A DNA stretch of 64,000 nt. Origin: Ancylothrix sp. D3o (GTDB lineage Bacteria > Cyanobacteriota > Cyanobacteriia > Cyanobacteriales > Oscillatoriaceae). Within the stretch, counting starts at the first letter, position 1; each line of letters begins with the position of its first letter. The DNA is taken from NCBI RefSeq assembly GCF_025370775.1, contig NZ_JAMXEX010000001.1, positions 186,001-250,000 of the forward strand. The letters run 5' to 3'. Both the position numbers and the translations under genes were made by a program. This document shows positions 31,582-60,912 of the stretch, one piece after another. The notes beneath the pieces were generated by a model, which was not told the DNA's origin, made no database searches, and saw only the letters and a program-made list of their open reading frames with translations.

Positions 31582-31656
31582 GGGTGTCTGACGGGACTTG
31601 AACCCGCTTTTACTGGTTCCACAAACCAGCGTCTCGACCACTTCGACTTCAGACAC
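31582..31656 (-). tRNA. tRNA-His(GTG), last gene of the tRNA array
   Basis: Minus strand: acceptor GGTGTCTG with CAGACACC, anticodon stem CTGGT/ACCAG with loop TTGTGGA (GTG), T-arm GCGGG-TTCAAGT-CCCGT. The D-arm is poorly paired and the body differs from the usual bacterial tRNA-His. Confidence 0.8.
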
Positions 31657-31689
31657 CATAGAAAGCAAAAGTTTGGTTTTTCACCAAGT

Positions 31690-31762
31690 CCCCCTGACTG
31701 GATTTGAACCAGCAAAAACACTCGTTCTAAGCGAGTGATGTTTTCCAATTACATCACAGGGG
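31690..31762 (-). tRNA. tRNA with Leu(TAG) anticodon but class I shape
   Basis: Minus strand: acceptor CCCCTGT/TCAGGGG, D-arm GATG..CATC, anticodon stem ACTCG/CGAGT with loop CTTAGAA (anticodon TAG), T-arm CTGG-TTCAAAT-CCAG. The variable loop is only about five bases, whereas genuine bacterial tRNA-Leu has a long arm. Confidence 0.75.
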
Positions 31763-31768
31763 TAAAGT

Positions 31769-31841
31769 CGGGATGGCAGGATTTGAACCTGCAACCTTCT
31801 GGCCCCAAACCAGCCGCGCTACCAAGTTGCGCTACATCCCG
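31769..31841 (-). tRNA. tRNA-Pro(TGG), array copy
   Basis: Minus strand: CGGGATG acceptor, loop TTTGGGG (anticodon TGG) on a CTGG/CCAG stem, T-arm TGCAGG-TTCAAAT-CCTGC. It duplicates the anticodon of the free-standing gene at 40991-41063 but the anticodon stem differs and has a mismatch at its base. Confidence 0.88.
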
Positions 31842-31977
31842 TTTATGCTCTTAGTTTGGAAGTTGTTCGCTTGGCGTGTCCTAGGCATACCCACACTTAA
31901 AATAAAACAAAATTTAAGTATGCGGAATCTGCCAATTCCAAGCTAAGAGCAAGTGAAAATTTATTGAAAAAATTGGT

Positions 31978-32052
31978 ACTCCTGATGAGATTTGAACTCA
32001 CACAATAGACTGTTTTTAAGACAGCCGCCTCTACCAATTGGGCTACAGGAGT
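31978..32052 (-). tRNA. tRNA with Leu(TAA) anticodon but class I shape
   Basis: Minus strand: 7-pair acceptor ACTCCTG/CAGGAGT, D-arm GCCCAATTGGTAGAGGC, anticodon stem CTGT/ACAG with loop CTTAAAA (anticodon TAA), T-arm TGAG-TTCAAAT-CTCA. There is no long variable arm, which is abnormal for tRNA-Leu. Confidence 0.8.
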
Positions 32053-32057
32053 TTTAC

Positions 32058-32129
32058 TGCCTCGCTAGGACTCGAACCTAGACTGTCTGATCCAAAATCA
32101 GATGTGCTGCCAACTTACACCACAAGGCA
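32058..32129 (-). tRNA. tRNA-Gln(TTG)
   Basis: Minus strand: acceptor TGCCTTG/CGAGGCA, anticodon stem TCTGA/TCAGA with loop TTTTGGA (TTG), T-arm CTAGG-TTCGAGT-CCTAG. Confidence 0.88.
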
Positions 32130-32138
32130 TTAACAGGC

Positions 32139-32209
32139 TGCCCCAGTAGGACTTGAACCTACAACATCCGCGTTAACAGCGCGTCGCTCTGCCATTGAGC
32201 TATAGGGCA
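32139..32209 (-). tRNA. tRNA-Asn(GTT)
   Basis: Minus strand: acceptor TGCCCTA/TGGGGCA, D-arm GCTCAATGGCAGAGC, anticodon loop CTGTTAA (GTT) on a CGCG/CGCG stem, T-arm GTAGG-TTCAAGT-CCTAC. Confidence 0.88.
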
Positions 32210-32216
32210 ATGCCAG

Positions 32217-32291
32217 TCCCCCAGGTCAGTATCGAACTGACGACCTCTTGTTTTTCAGACAAGCGCTCTCACCAACTGAGCTACCAGGGGA
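32217..32291 (-). tRNA. tRNA-Phe(GAA)
   Basis: Minus strand: acceptor TCCCCTG with TGGGGGA, D-arm GCTCAGTTGGTGAGAGC, anticodon stem CTTGT/ACAAG with loop CTGAAAA (GAA), T-arm GTCAG-TTCGATA-CTGAC. Confidence 0.9.
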
Positions 32292-32301
32292 TTTTGATAT
32301 A

Positions 32302-32387
32302 CGGAGAGAGGGATTTGAACTCTTGACGGTTAGTTAAACCGCTCTTTCTTAGCAGGAAACTGCCATTAGCCACTCGGCCACCTCTCC
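32302..32387 (-). tRNA. tRNA-Ser(GCT), class II
   Basis: Minus strand: acceptor GGAGAGG/CTCTCC, D-arm GCCGAGTGGC, loop CTGCTAA (anticodon GCT) on a TTTC/GAAA stem, and a proper long variable arm (CGGTT/AACCG). Confidence 0.87.
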
Positions 32388-32440
32388 AAAGAATCTGGAT
32401 TTGAAGCAGCAATGCTCAAATTTACACTACCCCCTGTTGG

Positions 32441-32512
32441 TGGCACCGGCGGGACTTGCACCCGCAACCTTTAGGGTATGAACCTATTGCTCTGCTTTTG
32501 AGCTACGGTGCG
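32441..32512 (-). tRNA. tRNA-Met(CAT), non-initiator type, divergent
   Basis: Minus strand: acceptor GCACCG/CGGTGC, D-arm GCTCAAAAGCAGAGC, anticodon loop TTCATAC (CAT) on a TAGG/CCTA stem, T-arm GCGGG-TGCAAGT-CCCGC. The T-loop has TG in place of the near-universal TT. The three G-C pairs of initiator tRNA are absent; a lysidine-type Ile tRNA is possible. Confidence 0.78.
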
Positions 32513-32520
32513 ATGTCACC

Positions 32521-32595
32521 AGAGGTCAGAGTGGGATTTGAACCCACGATTTTCGGTTTTGCAGACCGATGCCTTGCCAACTTGGCTACCTGACC
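32521..32595 (-). tRNA. tRNA-Cys(GCA)
   Basis: Minus strand: acceptor GGTCAGG with TCTGACC, U73 discriminator typical of tRNA-Cys, anticodon stem TCGGT/ACCGA with loop CTGCAAA (GCA), T-arm GTGGG-TTCAAAT-CCCAC. Confidence 0.87.
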
Positions 32596-32608
32596 CAAAA
32601 ATAGAGAG

Positions 32609-32683
32609 CGGGGATAACGGGATTTGAACCCGCGACTTCTCGTTCGACAGACGAGCGCTCTTAGCCAACTAAGCTATACCCCC
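32609..32683 (-). tRNA. tRNA-Asp(GTC), first gene of the tRNA array
   Basis: Minus strand: acceptor GGGGGTA with TATCCCC, D-arm GCTTAGTTGGCTAAGAGC, anticodon stem CTCGT/ACGAG with loop CTGTCGA (GTC), T-arm GCGGG-TTCAAAT-CCCGT. Confidence 0.9.
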
Positions 32684-32865: not shown

Positions 32866-32895
32866 ATACTACATAAATACTACAAAAAGTGTCAA
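32866..32895 (-). promoter_or_regulatory. Strong promoter of the tRNA array
   Basis: On the minus strand, -35 TTGACA (32890-32895), an 18-base spacer and -10 TAGTAT (32866-32871). The spacer and -10 contain two TGTAGTAT direct repeats 11 bases apart, and A5T5 tracts lie upstream. The architecture is the same as at 50326-50355. Confidence 0.75.
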
Positions 32896-50325: not shown

Positions 50326-50355
50326 TTGACAATTTTGTAGTATGCTGTGTAGTAT
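50326..50355 (+). promoter_or_regulatory. Promoter of the Y RNA-like array
   Basis: TTGACA at 50326-50331, 18-base spacer, TAGTAT at 50350-50355. TGTAGTAT occurs twice, 12 bases apart, the second overlapping the -10. A-tract/T-tract DNA (A9T5) lies upstream. It is the same design as the tRNA-array promoter at 32866-32895. Confidence 0.8.
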
Positions 50356-50484: not shown

Positions 50485-50900
<416 letters not shown>

Positions 50901-50920: not shown

Positions 50921-51055
50921 GCCGGCGTACCCTAATAAAAGCAGCTTACAAACGCTTTTGGTAATTGGAACGAAAGTTCTTTGTGGGTTCAAATCCCACC
51001 CTCTCCGTTGTTTGGAGAGGTGGCAAAATAACGCTGCTTTGACTTGTACGCCGGC
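50921..51055 (+). ncRNA. Y RNA-like element 1 (atypical tRNA-like body)
   Basis: Outer stem GCCGGCGTAC (50921-50930) pairs perfectly with GTACGCCGGC (51046-51055). Inside are the conserved CCTAA (931-) and TTTGACTT (51038-) strands and an inner stem AGCAGC/GCTGCT followed by CTTACA. The body has a GAAC-GAAA-GTTC hairpin, a T-arm GTGGG-TTCAAAT-CCCAC and an extra CCTCTCC/GGAGAGG hairpin, so only part of a tRNA shape. It begins 20 bases after the Ubl stop. Confidence 0.75.
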
Positions 51056-51101: not shown

Positions 51102-51227
51102 CCTTTCGCGCCCTAATTTAGAAAGCTTACATACTAGCTCACTGGTAGAGCATTACCCTCTTAAGGTAAAGGTTACAGGTTCGACCCCTGTGTATAACAC
51201 CATAGCTTTCTTGACTTGCGCGGGGGG
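51102..51227 (+). ncRNA. Y RNA-like element 2 with tRNA-Lys(CUU)-like body
   Basis: Outer stem CCTTTCGCG with CGCGGGGGG (three G-U), then CCCTAA opposite TTGACTTG, inner stem AGAAAGCT/AGCTTTCT. Enclosed is a tRNA-like fold: D-arm GCTC-ACTGGTA-GAGC, anticodon stem TTACC/GGTAA with loop CTCTTAA (CUU), T-arm ACAGG-TTCGACC-CCTGT. The acceptor is reduced to ATAC/GTAT joined to the Y stem. Not a functional tRNA end. Confidence 0.8.
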
Positions 51228-51303
51228 ACTTTTCATGCTGATAGTAAACAATTTTAAATTCCTGTTTTTGCCTCTGCGTTTAAAGTTTAAAATCCCAAAA
51301 TTT

Positions 51304-51456
51304 TCACTTCGCGCCCTAACTGAAAAAGCTTACATACTAGCTCAGTGGTAGAGCACTCGACTCTTAATCGATTTGTCACAGGTATGCGCTTACGCGCACG
51401 CTACGCGAACAAATCCTGTATATGTGATCATGGCTTTTTTAACTTGCGCGAAGTGA
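51304..51456 (+). ncRNA. Y RNA-like element 3 with Lys-like body and interrupted T-loop
   Basis: Outer stem TCACTTCGCG (51304-51313) pairs perfectly with CGCGAAGTGA (51447-51456). CCCTAAC opposes TTAACTTG; inner stem AAAAAGC/GCTTTTT. D-arm GCTCAGTGGTAGAGC, anticodon stem TCGA/TCGA with loop CTCTTAA (CUU). The T-arm ACAGG/CCTGT is split by about 26 inserted bases (51384-51409, starting ATGCGCTTACGCGCACG), a palindromic dispersed repeat type. Confidence 0.8.
51384..51409 (+). repeat. Short dispersed palindromic repeat inserted in the T-loop of element 3
   Basis: The inserted segment begins ATGCGCTTACGCGCACG and ends GCTACGCGAA. Its GCGC/TACGCG-rich palindromic style matches short dispersed repeats seen in cyanobacterial genomes, some of which insert in structural RNA loops. 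Confidence 0.55.
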
Positions 51457-51539
51457 CTTTTATTTGGGTGAAAGATGAGAGGTTTGGCGGTGCCGGCAAC
51501 TGGATTTTGTTAACCCATAAAAGCCAGTCAAAAGAAAGA

Positions 51540-52508
51540 ATGAGCGAACACCGCTTAAATGAAATTGTGATTGAACGGCCTCGCAATGGTATGAGGTTGA
51601 GTTCAACAAAGGTTAAAGGTTTTCAAAAGTCTCTGTACAAACTAACAAAAATTGCCACCGAAGATGGTTTGTTGAGTCCGTATTTGATTAAGACAAGAAC
51701 TCGGACAAAATATCTGTCGGATCATTTGGGCCCGTTACGCCGGCTTTTACGTTCTAAGGTGGGGAAACCTTGGGATGAGGTGTATAGTGAATTGCGGCGG
51801 AGACTTGATTTTAATACTGTAACCGGCTTGCACGTTCTGTCTCATGTTTGGGATTTTGTCTATAAGGATGTGGAGATTATTGACGGGGAGGTTTATTTGA
51901 AAGCTGGAAGCCGGCGCTTTGGAGGCGGATTTGGTGGCCGGAGAGATCGTTTTTATATCCACCCTGAAACCGGCATTCTTTGTTTTTTTGAGTCAACTCC
52001 CTCGATATGGCAGCCCAAAACAGCAATCAGAAACGAGAAAATTGTTATTGATGCTTACCACGAATATCAAAAGATTAATGATTTTTGGTATGAGGTGGAG
52101 TTTAAGGATTTTCCGCCGGTTCTGATTGCAAGGGATGTGATTTTGGAAAAACAAATTTCTCGCCGTGAGTGTTGGTGTTTTTACCGCAAGGCTGTTTATG
52201 CGGTTAAAAAACAATTGTGCCGGCAGGATGAGTTGAAGTTTTTGCAATCTCTTGATGAGCAAAAGTTGAGTCTTGGGGTTGTGAAAATTAATGATTACTG
52301 CCAATATCGCTTAATTGATGATCGGTGGTATGTGGTGACGCTGGCAGATTTTCCTAGGCCGGTGGTGTTGCGAGATGTTGTGATGAAGGAAAATATCACT
52401 ATCTATCAGGCAAATTGTTGCTATGGCCGGTCTGTTTATGCAGCACACAAACGCCAGTGTAGTAAGAAAGAAATCCAGTTCATTATGTCGGAGTTAGTCG
52501 GCGGTTAA
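51540..52508 (+). CDS. Unrecognised protein encoded inside the Y RNA-like array
   Basis: 322 residues. The N-terminal half is basic (KVKGFQKSLYKLTKIATEDG; RTRTKYLSDHLGPLRRLLRS, then SELRRRLDF). The C-terminal half has two related segments: INDFWYEVEFKDFPPVLIAR-DVILEK..SRRECWCFYRKAVYAVKKQLC and YRLIDDRWYVVTLADFPRPV-VLRDVV..QANCCYGRSVYAAHKRQC, i.e. an internal repeat with conserved W/F/D and a C-x-RKAVYA-x-K-Q motif. Probably nucleic-acid binding given charge and context (inference). ATG at 51540; the frame is open upstream but overlaps element 3. Confidence 0.7.
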   Translation: MSEHRLNEIVIERPRNGMRLSSTKVKGFQKSLYKLTKIATEDGLLSPYLIKTRTRTKYLSDHLGPLRRLLRSKVGKPWDEVYSELRRRLDFNTVTGLHVLSHVWDFVYKDVEIIDGEVYLKAGSRRFGGGFGGRRDRFYIHPETGILCFFESTPSIWQPKTAIRNEKIVIDAYHEYQKINDFWYEVEFKDFPPVLIARDVILEKQISRRECWCFYRKAVYAVKKQLCRQDELKFLQSLDEQKLSLGVVKINDYCQYRLIDDRWYVVTLADFPRPVVLRDVVMKENITIYQANCCYGRSVYAAHKRQCSKKEIQFIMSELVGG

Positions 52509-52553
52509 AACCGGCATCTACACGAACAAAGTCCCTAACGGGACTAGGCGAAT

Positions 52554-52686
52554 AATCACTTCGCGCCCTAACTAACAAAGCTTACATACTAGCCAAATGG
52601 AAAAGGCGCTTGATTTAGGTTCAAGTATATGTGGGTTCAATTCCTGCGTATGAAACAACGGCTTTGTTAACTTGCGTGAAGTGATT
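52554..52686 (+). ncRNA. Y RNA-like element 4 with tRNA-Leu(UAG)-like body
   Basis: Outer stem AATCACTTCGCG (52554-52565) pairs with CGTGAAGTGATT (52675-52686), one G-U. CCCTAAC opposes TTAACTTG; inner stem TAACAAAGC/GCTTTGTTA is 9 perfect pairs. D-arm GCC..GGC, anticodon stem CTTGA/TCAAG with loop TTTAGGT (UAG), T-arm GTGGG-TTCAATT-CCTGC, acceptor remnant CATAC/GTATG. Confidence 0.82.
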
Positions 52687-52761
52687 TTATTTCTGTTACC
52701 TGTTGCAAAAACCATTTCAAGAAATTTACAACTTTCTTGCTCCTTTTTTCAGCCGAAAATT

Positions 52762-52903
52762 ACCACTCCGCGTCCTAACCGGCAAAGCTTACATACATAC
52801 TAGCCGAATTACAGGCGCTTGACTCAAGATCAAGTCTCGCAAGAGATTGTGGGTTTAATTCCCACGTTTGTAAACAAGGCTTTGCTGACTTGCGCGGGGT
52901 GGT
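52762..52903 (+). ncRNA. Y RNA-like element 5 with class II tRNA-Leu(CAA)-like body
   Basis: Outer stem ACCACTCCGCG (52762-52772) with CGCGGGGTGGT (52893-52903). CCTAAC opposes CTGACTTG; inner stem CGGCAAAGC/GCTTTGCTG. D-arm GCC..GGC, anticodon stem CTTGA/TCAAG with loop CTCAAGA (CAA), a real variable-arm hairpin TCTC-GCAA-GAGA, T-arm GTGGG-TTTAATT-CCCAC. This is the only copy with a class II shape. Confidence 0.82.
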
Positions 52904-52944: not shown

Positions 52945-53472
52945 ATGGCAAATAATACAGGAATTTTAGAAAAAATTAAACGCTTAACCGACCAAGAGAA
53001 AGGGGAAATGGTGCAGCGAATTCAGGAAACTTCGATAACGAAATCGGCAAAAGTTTGGACAACCGGAGAAATAGATAAATTACTAACGGCTTTTCAATCT
53101 GCAACTTTGCCGAGAAGTGAGTGGAACCATGAGGCGCATTTAATTGTTGCTTTGTGGTATTTGCAGAATTATCCAGAAACGCAAGCAATCAACCGCATTC
53201 GTTATGGAATTCAAAGATATAACCGCCTTTGTGGCATCAAAACAACAAAGGATAATGGCTATCACGAAACCTTAACGCTGTTCTGGATAAAAATGGTGAG
53301 TTGTTATCTTTTAAAAACTGATCAAGCTCGTTATTTTGAACAAACAGCGAGGAGTTTAATTGAAAACTTGGGAGAGGTTTATTTGCCTTTCAAATATTAC
53401 AGTCGGGAACGATTGTTATCTTGGGAAGCTCGCATAAAGTGGATGGAACCTGATTTGAAAAACTTTGCATAA
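52945..53472 (+). CDS. Unrecognised protein encoded inside the Y RNA-like array
   Basis: 175 residues, SD GGAGGG. After a charged helix (KIKRLTDQEKGEMVQRIQE) the core has a WNHEAHLIVALWYLQNYPET motif, INRIRYGIQRYNRLCGIKTT, and GYHETLTLFWIKMVSCYLLK. The H-x2-H and later G-Y-H-E-T could bind metal. I do not recognise the family. Ends 10 bases before element 6. Confidence 0.75.
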   Translation: MANNTGILEKIKRLTDQEKGEMVQRIQETSITKSAKVWTTGEIDKLLTAFQSATLPRSEWNHEAHLIVALWYLQNYPETQAINRIRYGIQRYNRLCGIKTTKDNGYHETLTLFWIKMVSCYLLKTDQARYFEQTARSLIENLGEVYLPFKYYSRERLLSWEARIKWMEPDLKNFA

Positions 53473-53482
53473 AATGATAGTT

Positions 53483-55057
<1,575 letters not shown>

Positions 55058-59343: not shown

Positions 59344-60255
59344 ATGAAAAAAATTCAGCAAATTATCAACCAAATTGCCGCAGAAGAAAACCAACTACTG
59401 AAAACTCAATTTCTTGCCCCCTGCGTGCTCGGCGGACAATTGCGGACAAAAGTAGCAGGAATGATGTACACTTTTACTCCCAAACCCCGCAACTTTGAAG
59501 GCTGGGGAATTTTTCAACCGGCCTCCCCCAAGCAAGCAAAACTCATCGAACAAGCCAGCCTCCCTGAAATAGGAGAATACCTAGAAAAATTTACCCCAAT
59601 TCGTTTATTTTTAGCTCATGTTTTGCGTGAGCAAACAAATAATGTTTTGCGTGAGCAAACAAATAACGTTTTGCCTCAGCAAACAAATAATGTTTTGCGT
59701 GAGCAAACGTGGCTGGCTTATCCTGTTAACGAGTCCGATATGCAGCAGCGCACCGGCATTCTTAAACCCGTCCCCGTTTATCTAGTCAGCGATGGCGCAG
59801 CATTTGAGACAATTATTGCGCGCTGGGATGGCAAAAACTTCTGGTATGAAGACACCGACCGCCGCGCCGAAATTGAGCCGGTAGAACACTTAAAAAACGC
59901 CCTCAAAAACGTCATTTCTCCCAAACAAATACGTTTCAAAGGCATGACCCCAGAAATGCGAATTGTCTATGAATTAGTCGCCCAAAAAACCCCAGAATTT
60001 CAAGCAGAATTCCAACAAGAGCGAGATGAAAAACGCCTCAAAGAAGCCTTAAAAATGGGTGGAGGAACCTTGCAAGAATTCCGCGAACGCCCCGATTATT
60101 GGCTCGTAGAATGGACAACCGGCACCGGCGAACGTCACAGCAGCGCCATTTCTAAAACCGACCTCACCGTTATCAGCGCCGGCATTTGTTTAAGCGGAGA
60201 AGATCGTAAGTTTGACTTGCAATCTTTAGTAGGAATAGTTGAATACGCAGATTAG
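59344..60255 (+). CDS. Unrecognised protein with internal 8-residue repeats
   Basis: 303 residues. FLAPCVLGGQLRTKVAGMMY and RNFEGWGIFQPASPKQAKLI define an N-terminal domain; WLAYPVNESDMQQRTGIL and VYLVSDGAAFETIIARWDGK, WYEDTDRRAEIEP follow. A tandem NVLREQTN octapeptide (four copies, residues about 92-122) is inserted in the first domain, encoded by a 24-base DNA repeat. The C-terminus VGIVEYAD is conserved-looking. Function unknown. Confidence 0.7.
   Translation: MKKIQQIINQIAAEENQLLKTQFLAPCVLGGQLRTKVAGMMYTFTPKPRNFEGWGIFQPASPKQAKLIEQASLPEIGEYLEKFTPIRLFLAHVLREQTNNVLREQTNNVLPQQTNNVLREQTWLAYPVNESDMQQRTGILKPVPVYLVSDGAAFETIIARWDGKNFWYEDTDRRAEIEPVEHLKNALKNVISPKQIRFKGMTPEMRIVYELVAQKTPEFQAEFQQERDEKRLKEALKMGGGTLQEFRERPDYWLVEWTTGTGERHSSAISKTDLTVISAGICLSGEDRKFDLQSLVGIVEYAD
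59617..59709 (+). repeat. Four tandem 24-base units inside a coding region
   Basis: Unit core TTTTGCGTGAGCAAAC with small changes (one copy CCTCAG); each unit is itself a TTTGC/GCAAA hairpin. The frame is kept. Confidence 0.8.
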
Positions 60256-60279: not shown

Positions 60280-60912
60280 ATGTCAATTTTTTTGCACGAA
60301 CAAATTTACAGAACCCCGGAAGTCATGGCGAAAATTAAAAAACTACCCGTGACAATTTGTGGAGCCGGTGCATTAGGAGCAAACCTTACAGAAAACCTAG
60401 CAAGAACCGGTTTTTCTAACCTCAAAATCATCGACAGAGATCGCATAGAAGAGCGAAATCTTTCCACCCAACCCTATTATCGCTCAGATATTGGCGCATT
60501 CAAAGCCAAAATTCTCAGCAACAGCCTCTATCGCGCCTTGGGGTTAAAAATGGAGGTACAAACCAAAGAATTAACCGCAGAAAATGCAGCCCAACTCATC
60601 GCCAAACCCAGCTTAGTTATCGATACTTTTGATAACAGCATCTCCCGCCAAACCGTAAAAGATTATTGTGTAGCAGCAAACCTTGATTGCTTGCACATTG
60701 GTTTAGCATCAGATTATGCCGAGGTTATTTGGAATCAAAATTATCGCGTTCCCTCTCCCGTCAATGATGATGTCTGTGATTATCCCTTAGCCAGAAACCT
60801 AGTGTTATTGGCTGTGGCTGTCGCATCTGAAATTATTATTAAATTTGCAGCCACCGGCACCCAAGAAAGTTTTACAATAACACTAGGCGATTTTACCATT
60901 CAACCTTTTTGA
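60280..60912 (+). CDS. ThiF/E1-like Rossmann protein, minimal
   Basis: 210 residues. VTICGAGALGANLTENLA (nucleotide motif), LKIIDRDRIEERNLSTQPYY (E1 D-x-D-x-V/I and N-x-x-x-Q) and DIGAFKAKI (conserved Lys) are ThiF/MoeB/E1-type. In classical E1s the motif is N-L-N-R-Q; here the arginine is replaced (NLSTQ). DTFDNSISRQTVKDYC matches the second acidic motif. No C-x-x-C zinc site or extra Cys domain. It would adenylate a Ubl C-terminus such as that at 50700-50900 (inference). 24 bases after the previous gene. Confidence 0.82.
   Translation: MSIFLHEQIYRTPEVMAKIKKLPVTICGAGALGANLTENLARTGFSNLKIIDRDRIEERNLSTQPYYRSDIGAFKAKILSNSLYRALGLKMEVQTKELTAENAAQLIAKPSLVIDTFDNSISRQTVKDYCVAANLDCLHIGLASDYAEVIWNQNYRVPSPVNDDVCDYPLARNLVLLAVAVASEIIIKFAATGTQESFTITLGDFTIQPF

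What the first reader, a model, noticed from the sequence alone, without database searches (positions are those of the whole stretch)
51102..52903. tRNA-like bodies carry different identities: Lys(CUU) twice, Leu(UAG), and class II Leu(CAA)
Elements 2-5 keep D-arm, anticodon arm and T-arm with 7-base anticodon loops, but the acceptor stem is lost into the Y stem and no CCA end is possible. Elements 4 and 5 carry Leu anticodons, and element 5 even has a variable-arm hairpin as in true tRNA-Leu. The bodies look as if separate tRNAs were captured into one Y RNA frame. They may be baits for tRNA-modifying or tRNA-cleaving enzymes, such as anticodon nucleases (inference).
Basis: partly seen in the sequence, partly recalled or inferred. 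Interest (0 to 1): 0.75.

Follow-up and report, generated by a model that had tools for sequence, protein, structure and literature searches.

The report
tRNA-mimicking Y RNA array beside Ro60
A cyanobacterium carries a row of small RNAs shaped like tRNAs but built to hang on a Ro60-type protein; relatives carry the same kind of RNA with pieces of ribosomal RNA instead, and the set looks switched on when protein synthesis is under attack.

Summary
Elements 2-5 are covariation-supported RNAs with D, anticodon and T arms in tRNA order inside a Y-RNA frame (triplets CUU, CUU, UAG, CAA). Corrections: element 3 has a 26-nt repeat in its T loop, element 5 has lost G18G19, and a 4-bp acceptor remnant survives. 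The downstream gene is a divergent Ro60/Rsr (fold match Z about 22); the frame occurs in 23 of 24 Ro-positive and 0 of 36 Ro-negative relatives examined. 'Identity' is not supported: the triplet changes about as fast as four-fold-degenerate sites while the rest of the RNA is frozen, and each body's nearest kin are Y RNAs of other genomes, not this genome's tRNAs. Beyond the finding: relatives hold Y RNAs copying 23S rRNA sites (sarcin-ricin loop plus GTPase-associated centre; H71 region), and this genome's only two paired TrcR-type operators precede this array and an 11-gene tRNA array. Most likely: a translation-stress Ro-Y operon whose RNAs are shape mimics of tRNA and ribosome sites, as decoys or docking platforms. 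Function is inferred; there are no expression or binding data. Normal-order bodies look like a new variant of bacterial Y RNA.

The parts
50326..50355 (+). promoter TTGACA-18-TAGTAT carrying two TrcR-type 8-mers TGTAGTAT (50336-50343, 50348-50355)
   Evidence: the paired 8-mer occurs only twice in the 6.57-Mb genome; operator as described for Anabaena (PMC10272220)
50413..50429 (+). leader motif CCTTGAAAATTTAATAA, shared with the tRNA-array leader and resembling an rrn-spacer element (boxA-like, inference)
50700..50900 (+). ORF66: 66-aa protein with invariant C-terminal Gly, beta-grasp-like model; in 86 of 110 related loci
50925..51051 (+). element 1: permuted (YrlA-like order) Ser-like body, T arm 50983-50999 then closed acceptor hairpin 51000-51020
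51106..51223 (+). element 2: normal-order tRNA-like Y RNA, triplet CUU 51160-51162
51309..51451 (+). element 3: normal-order tRNA-like Y RNA, triplet CUU 51363-51365, repeat insert 51384-51409 in the T loop
52561..52679 (+). element 4: normal-order tRNA-like Y RNA, triplet UAG 52616-52618, short variable loop
52768..52897 (+). element 5: normal-order tRNA-like Y RNA with variable-arm hairpin 52835-52846, triplet CAA 52825-52827, D-loop GG missing
53487..53554 (+). element 6: minimal Y stem without body, just upstream of the Ro gene (possible autoregulatory leader, inference)
53621..55057 (+). Ro60/Rsr-like protein (HEAT ring plus VWA domain), 478 aa
56554..57102 (+). KptA/Tpt1 RNA 2'-phosphotransferase; in 17 of 110 related loci
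59344..60255 (+). ORF303, no known family; in 55 of 110 related loci
60280..60912 (+). ThiF/E1-like adenylyltransferase; in 49 of 110 related loci
31582..32683 (-). array of 11 tRNA genes sharing operator and leader design with the Y array
32866..32884 (-). paired TrcR-type 8-mers of the tRNA array

Best explanation
Shown here: elements 1-6 form one same-strand array behind one plus-strand promoter-like site and end at a divergent Ro60/Rsr gene. Their common frame is a bacterial Y RNA. Elements 2-5 keep a tRNA-like body in normal order (D, anticodon and T arms, and in the aligned class the elbow letters G18, G19, U54, U55, C56, A58 that make a tRNA L-shaped), with the acceptor reduced to 4 bp and merged into the Y stem. 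Inferred: the operon is silent until translation is disturbed, is then de-repressed through the TrcR-type operators together with the spare tRNA array, and the transcript is cut into Y RNAs that Ro binds by the stem. The bodies then act as shape mimics of tRNA (and, in relatives, of the ribosomal factor-binding centre and the H71 region). They occupy proteins that recognise those shapes: attackers such as RNA-cleaving or RNA-modifying toxins (decoy), or the cell's own RNA-handling enzymes brought to Ro (docking). Because the triplet is free to change, recognition is by shape and loop context, not by anticodon identity.
For: Ro fold: the ten top matches are all Ro60/Rsr/TROVE, Z 19.6-22.4 over 417-440 residues; the next, unrelated, row is Z 14.4. 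Co-occurrence of frame and Ro: 23 of 24 against 0 of 36. All 118 elements found in the 28 fetched neighbouring loci lie on the Ro strand; in 80 further named loci 321 lie on the Ro strand, 5 opposite, 2 in shuffled controls. Covariation; elbow letters invariant in the 27 aligned. Stress link: paired TGTAGTAT occurs twice in the whole genome, at this array and at the tRNA array; paired sites on the Ro strand in 24 of 102 loci, 0 of 102 on the other strand and 0 of 102 for each of three control words; this 8-mer is the operator of the Anabaena stress-induced trn operon (PMC10272220). tRNA arrays adjoin the Y array in 8 of 27 loci, and 9 of 75 named loci have at least 8 same-strand tRNAs. Ribosome mimics: sarcin-ricin loop core TACGAGAGG in 18 of 18 aligned; Rfam LSU rRNA hit over its cut-off.
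Against: No transcript, Ro-binding, cleavage or modification data exist here. The triplet evolves at about the neutral rate, which speaks against baits for nucleases that read one anticodon. Salmonella YrlA was not cut by the nuclease that attacks tRNAs (PMC7790460), which fits an inhibitor but equally a bystander. The window's own genome shows no rRNA-type Y RNA, in a draft that also gave no exact SRL core. Its rtcB has no TGTAGTAT upstream. TrcR itself was not looked for.
Confidence: 0.5

Rival explanations
1. Tether model: the tRNA-like bodies are docking handles that bring an exoribonuclease such as PNPase, or other cellular RNA enzymes, to Ro, as in the Deinococcus Rsr-Y RNA-PNPase machine. 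Shape is needed for docking; nothing is baited.
For: The known role of Y RNA in Deinococcus is to tether Rsr to PNPase (PMC7790460 passages; PMC8394870 passages). The frozen body with a free triplet fits a shape-reading partner.
Against: One handle would do; loci carry up to 10 elements of several kinds, including copies of distinct ribosomal sites that no single nuclease is known to bind (recalled).
Confidence: 0.3
2. Diversity-favoured decoy bank: anticodon triplets are under selection to vary so that the array as a whole covers many nuclease specificities.
For: 22 kinds of triplet in 45 bodies with U33 kept in 42 (one of the 45 loops is a mis-call); in Nostocaceae the triplet differs in 43% of comparisons against 30% at four-fold sites; a 595-kb phage carries the same kind of array.
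Against: In the window's own group the triplet is only at the four-fold rate, 38% against 35%; pairs are not independent and codon bias slows four-fold sites, so an excess is not shown.
Confidence: 0.2
3. Decaying tRNA copies: the bodies are relics of tRNA genes caught in a repeat and drifting without function.
For: Triplet drift; a repeat inserted in E3 and a D-loop loss in E5.
Against: Outside the triplet the RNA is far more conserved than four-fold sites (9.5% against 35%); strong covariation; co-occurrence with Ro.
Confidence: 0.05
4. Substrate platform: the Ro-Y RNPs serve a ubiquitin-like or sulfur-carrier pathway (ORF66 plus ThiF) that modifies tRNA-like or damaged RNAs or ribosome-bound proteins.
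For: ORF66 in 86, ORF303 in 55 and ThiF in 49 of 110 loci; all three also in the phage locus; ORF66 model is beta-grasp-like with an invariant terminal Gly.
Against: Foldseek gives no significant hit for ORF66 (best E 0.23) and Z values of 5.3 or less are weak; no biochemical link to the RNAs.
Confidence: 0.12

Closest known systems
YrlA bacterial Y RNA (Rfam RF02553; Salmonella)
   Same: Y stem plus tRNA-like body beside a Ro/Rsr gene; the permuted class in relatives matches RF02553 below its gathering score (L045, 37.8 of 69 bits, E 2.3e-6).
   Different: YrlA runs T arm - closed acceptor - D arm with the Y stem in the anticodon place (alignment). Elements 2-5 run D - anticodon - T with the Y stem in the acceptor place and a full anticodon arm; none of the window's elements matched RF02553 at E <= 1.
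Deinococcus Rsr / Y RNA / PNPase complex
   Same: Ro60-fold protein with Y RNAs (2nvo Z 20.9 over 440 residues).
   Different: Whether PNPase or any effector is tethered here is unknown; arrays of many mimics are not part of the description seen.
Anabaena trn operon and TrcR regulon
   Same: TGTAGTAT operator overlapping a TAGTAT -10 box; spare tRNA array.
   Different: A Y RNA-Ro operon is not among the TrcR targets tabulated in the section read (Table 1).
Transfer RNA
   Same: Arms, 7-base anticodon loop, U33, elbow letters.
   Different: No 7-bp acceptor, no CCA end, triplet not conserved.

Membership tests
Ro60/Rsr protein | HEAT-repeat ring closed by a VWA domain | tested here: met
   Model pLDDT 83.2; ten best matches all Ro60/Rsr/TROVE, Z 19.6-22.4, next unrelated VWA row Z 14.4
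Ro60/Rsr protein | MIDAS-type DxSxS in the VWA domain | tested here: met
   D301, S303, S305 invariant in 26 sequences; motif name recalled
Ro60/Rsr protein | recognised by Pfam/NCBIfam profiles | tested here: inconclusive
   No family at E <= 0.01 (Pfam) or E <= 1 (NCBIfam); PDB TROVE sequences only at E 0.17
Bacterial Y RNA | RNA closed by 5'/3' pairing with an internal loop, encoded with a Ro gene | tested here: met
   Stems covary; 23 of 24 Ro+ against 0 of 36 Ro- genomes
Bacterial Y RNA | bound by Ro | not testable with these tools
   needs pull-down
YrlA (RF02553) | permuted T - acceptor - D order, no anticodon arm | tested here: not met
   Elements 2-5 are in normal order with an anticodon arm; no RF02553 match in the window at E <= 1. 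Element 1 has the permuted order but no match either
tRNA | 7-bp acceptor stem with a CCA-capable 3' end | tested here: not met
   4-bp remnant joined to the Y stem
TrcR regulon | TGTAGTAT at the -10 box | tested here: met
TrcR regulon | TrcR binds and represses | not testable with these tools
   needs a binding assay and a trcR deletion in this or a related strain

The most novel reading that the evidence does not exclude
Cyanobacteria, and at least one very large phage, keep a translation-stress-induced library of Ro-held RNA mimics. In the cyanobacteria these together copy RNA sites at which protein synthesis is attacked: tRNA anticodon arms with freely changing triplets, tRNAs in permuted form, the sarcin-ricin loop with the GTPase-associated centre, and the H71 region of 23S rRNA. 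The library soaks up or senses toxins while a spare tRNA array replaces what was cut.
Probability: 0.3. Interest if true: 0.93.

Novelty: new variant of a known kind. Interest (0 to 1): 0.82.

Why it matters
It would give bacterial Y RNAs, whose purpose outside Deinococcus is open, a testable role. One stress operon, found across filamentous cyanobacteria, joins Ro60, tRNA mimics, ribosome-site mimics and spare tRNAs. It also warns annotators that ARAGORN and Rfam name these RNAs as tRNA-Lys, -Leu, -Met and so on although they cannot be charged.

Tried and rejected
Rejected: recent capture of the genome's own tRNA-Lys or tRNA-Leu (best local alignment scores of E2-E5 to own tRNAs 43-68, to other genomes' Y RNAs 84-126). 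Rejected: pseudogene drift as the whole story (conservation and covariation). Not found in this genome: an rRNA-type Y RNA (pattern scans; the draft may lack it).

Led nowhere: identifying the body GGTGCGTAC...GCAAGCC (for example L031, L050): no Rfam match at E <= 0.5 in the three loci searched; nine bodies were left as 'other'. Pfam and NCBIfam on ORF66 and ORF303: nothing usable. A split-T-loop count by regex over-matched (50 hits, most of them ordinary); about ten true cases were seen by eye. One of 45 anticodon loops (L052_9468) was mis-called by the script (its loop has 8 bases) and is still in those counts. rtcB promoter check negative.

Limits of the counts: A2 used 27 of the 45 normal-order bodies of the window and L031-L058 (standard length only). 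A3 used 18 of 29 distinct SRL-type RNAs. The tree used 39 of 45 bodies. The E4 slot left out L032 (insert). In the co-occurrence table G036's 23-bit hit was counted as Ro-negative, and model R1 was built from RNAs near Ro genes, so the test leans towards Ro-positive lineages. Classes are regex-based and approximate. Pairwise comparisons of sequences are not independent.

Literature: Chen 2014, Sim and Wolin 2018, Wang 2018 and a further DOI for the Anabaena tRNA operon paper were asked for and not held, so I cannot exclude that normal-order or multi-copy forms are described there. That rRNA-type Y RNAs are not in print rests only on searches of the open-licence library (search listings; passages of PMC7790460, PMC8394870 and PMC10272220, plus outline and section 8 of the last).
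Full report
What is there. The window is C1:186001-250000 of an unnamed 6.57-Mb cyanobacterial draft (cyanobacterial by its named relatives). Between 50925 and 53554 lie six plus-strand elements with one frame: a lower stem, a CCCTAA/ACTTG internal loop and an upper stem ending AAAGC/GCTTT. Elements 2-5 contain tRNA-like bodies; element 1 a permuted, Ser-like body; element 6 none. ARAGORN and Rfam support the tRNA reading. The only plus-strand promoter-like site between 50180 and 53640 is TTGACA-18-TAGTAT at 50326-50355 (the scan as a whole is not above its shuffles).

Anatomy test. On 27 aligned RNAs of the normal-order class the structure with Y stems, a 4-bp acceptor remnant, D, anticodon and T arms forms standard pairs in 94.0% of cells, with both-side changes in 20 of 33 pairs (98 cells; shuffled mean 28.6) and falls apart when slid. 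All five anticodon-stem pairs have both-side changes. G18, G19, U54, U55, C56 and A58 are invariant in the 27 (tRNA numbering recalled). So the L-shape is selected. Element 3's T loop is split by 26 nt and element 5 lost its D-loop GG, so single elements can lose parts.

The protein. 53621-55057 has no Pfam or NCBIfam hit, and only weak sequence matches to TROVE chains (E 0.95 and 0.17). Its model (pLDDT 83.2) matches Ro60/Rsr over nearly the whole length: 1yvp Z 22.4 over 437, 2nvo Z 20.9 over 440, with the next unrelated row at Z 14.4. It is a divergent Ro60. Among 60 genomes (own included) 24 have it, taking G036's 23-bit hit as negative; 23 of the 24 and none of the other 36 have a strong full-length hit of the RNA model (E <= 1e-17).

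Are the anticodons identities? I compared slots E2, E4 and E5 with the three closest genomes. Triplet letters differ in 17 of 45 pairwise comparisons, the rest of the RNA in 171 of 1803, four-fold sites of the Ro gene in 440 of 1263. In a slot shared by 16 named loci, mostly Nostoc, the anticodon stem CTTGA/TCAAG is identical in all 16 while the triplet has eight forms; differences are 155 of 360 for the triplet, 126 of 480 for the other loop letters, 734 of 13384 elsewhere and 7328 of 24811 at four-fold sites. Across 45 bodies U33 is kept in 42 and a purine at 37 in 43, while triplets take 22 forms, with A34 in 7 (1 of 50 real tRNAs). The loop context is kept, the triplet is not. The nearest five rows of each of E2-E5 in a 150-row tree are Y RNAs from other genomes; the tree has few columns and many open forks. 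Strongly supported branches force at least three label changes, so more than one capture is likely but not shown.

Kinds of body. In 28 neighbouring loci plus the window, 124 elements fell, by regex, into 45 normal, 35 permuted, 20 minimal, 9 SRL type, 6 H71 type and 9 other. ARAGORN found no tRNA in any rotation of 124 shuffled bodies but found one in 51 of 124 real ones. The permuted order is that of Rfam's YrlA, whose consensus runs T arm - closed acceptor - D arm; a review read in passages describes YrlA as having D, T and acceptor arms (PMC8394870). In 80 named loci (five of them already held) the frame occurs 321 times on the Ro strand, 5 times on the other, 2 times in shuffled controls; 78 of 80 loci have it. 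Without duplicates there are 422 elements, 409 distinct, in 100 loci, with 29 SRL-type and 25 H71-type RNAs.

Ribosome mimics. Blastn against a related 23S rRNA placed bodies at 1070-1136 (GTPase-associated centre) and 1913-1945 (H71 region), with some weaker hits of tRNA-type bodies; a reversed reference gave one short hit. Rfam's LSU model passes its cut-off on one of these stretches (52.5 against 50 bits, L031). In 18 aligned SRL-type RNAs TACGAGAGG is invariant and 18 of 46 predicted pairs have both-side changes. Site names are recalled. The window's genome itself shows none.

Regulation. TGTAGTAT occurs six times in the window against 0.80 expected: twice before the Y array, twice before the 11-gene tRNA array on the other strand, twice elsewhere. 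As a pair it occurs exactly twice in the genome, at those two places. In Anabaena this 8-mer is the TrcR operator overlapping the TAGTAT -10 box of a 26-gene tRNA operon that is silent until translation is disturbed (PMC10272220, outline, passages and section 8). Over 102 loci, paired sites lie on the Ro strand in 24, on the other strand in 0, and in 0 for three control words. Single sites within 700 nt upstream of a Y RNA: 39 of 73 loci, against 10 (other strand), 13, 1, 4 and 1 (control words); the 13 for the reversed word shows that single sites alone are modest evidence. Both leaders share CCTTGAAAATTTAATAA, like an element in the 16S-23S spacer of a relative; CCTTGAAAA follows the operator within 160 nt at 33 of 226 sites against 0.24% background. 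Own rtcB lacks the site.

Neighbourhood. tRNA arrays of 17-33 genes precede the Y array on the same strand in 8 of 27 loci; 9 of 75 named loci have at least 8 same-strand tRNAs; a Kovacikia plasmid has tRNA array, Y RNAs, SRL type and Ro together. ORF66 lies between promoter and element 1 and occurs in 86 of 110 loci, ORF303 in 55, ThiF in 49, KptA in 17 (the 110 include five duplicate loci). ORF66 models as a beta-grasp-like fold (pLDDT 88.2) but only with weak scores. A 595-kb uncultured phage has Ro at 48.6% identity, its own Y array, ORF66, ORF303 and ThiF.

Mechanism. Best fit: a translation-stress operon that produces Ro-bound shape mimics. The data speak against conserved anticodon identity, favour shape recognition, and do not tell decoy from docking. 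A decoy role for YrlA against an anticodon nuclease is already suggested in print (PMC7790460 passages), where YrlA fragments were not seen. The tether role is the known one in Deinococcus (same passages).

Judgement. The finding is real but its reading by anticodon name is not. What raises interest is the wider set: normal-order tRNA bodies, permuted bodies and ribosomal sites in one Ro-linked frame, tied to a tRNA array by a genome-unique operator.

Noticed in passing
window 31582-32683 (-): 11-gene tRNA array; its Leu(TAG) and Leu(TAA) genes lack a long variable arm, so anticodon and body class disagree; relatives' arrays hold CTA ('Pyl') and ATA anticodons.
   Followed up: partly
window 51384-51409; L032, L050, L154, L183, L194, L206, L209, L214: Short repeats sit again and again at the same place inside the T loop of Y RNA bodies, about ten cases by eye.
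   Followed up: partly
L225 (LR756511.1, 595-kb uncultured phage): Phage Ro60-like gene with Y RNA array, ORF66, ORF303 and ThiF homologues.
   Followed up: partly
window 50700-50900 and 60280-60912: ORF66 with invariant terminal Gly and a beta-grasp-like model, plus an E1-like ThiF in the same locus: possible ubiquitin-like or sulfur-carrier pair tied to Ro.
   Followed up: partly
window 53487-53554: A body-less Y stem lies just upstream of the Ro start in most loci; it may let Ro bind its own mRNA.
   Followed up: no
L031 11195 (scan coordinate), L032, L033, L050, L054, L055, L211: A further Y RNA body kind (GGTGCGTAC...GCTGCAAGCC...) that matched nothing in Rfam where searched.
   Followed up: no
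window 51345-52508 and 52945-53472: Two open frames of no known protein family inside the array; homologues in 46 and 36 of 103 loci.
   Followed up: no
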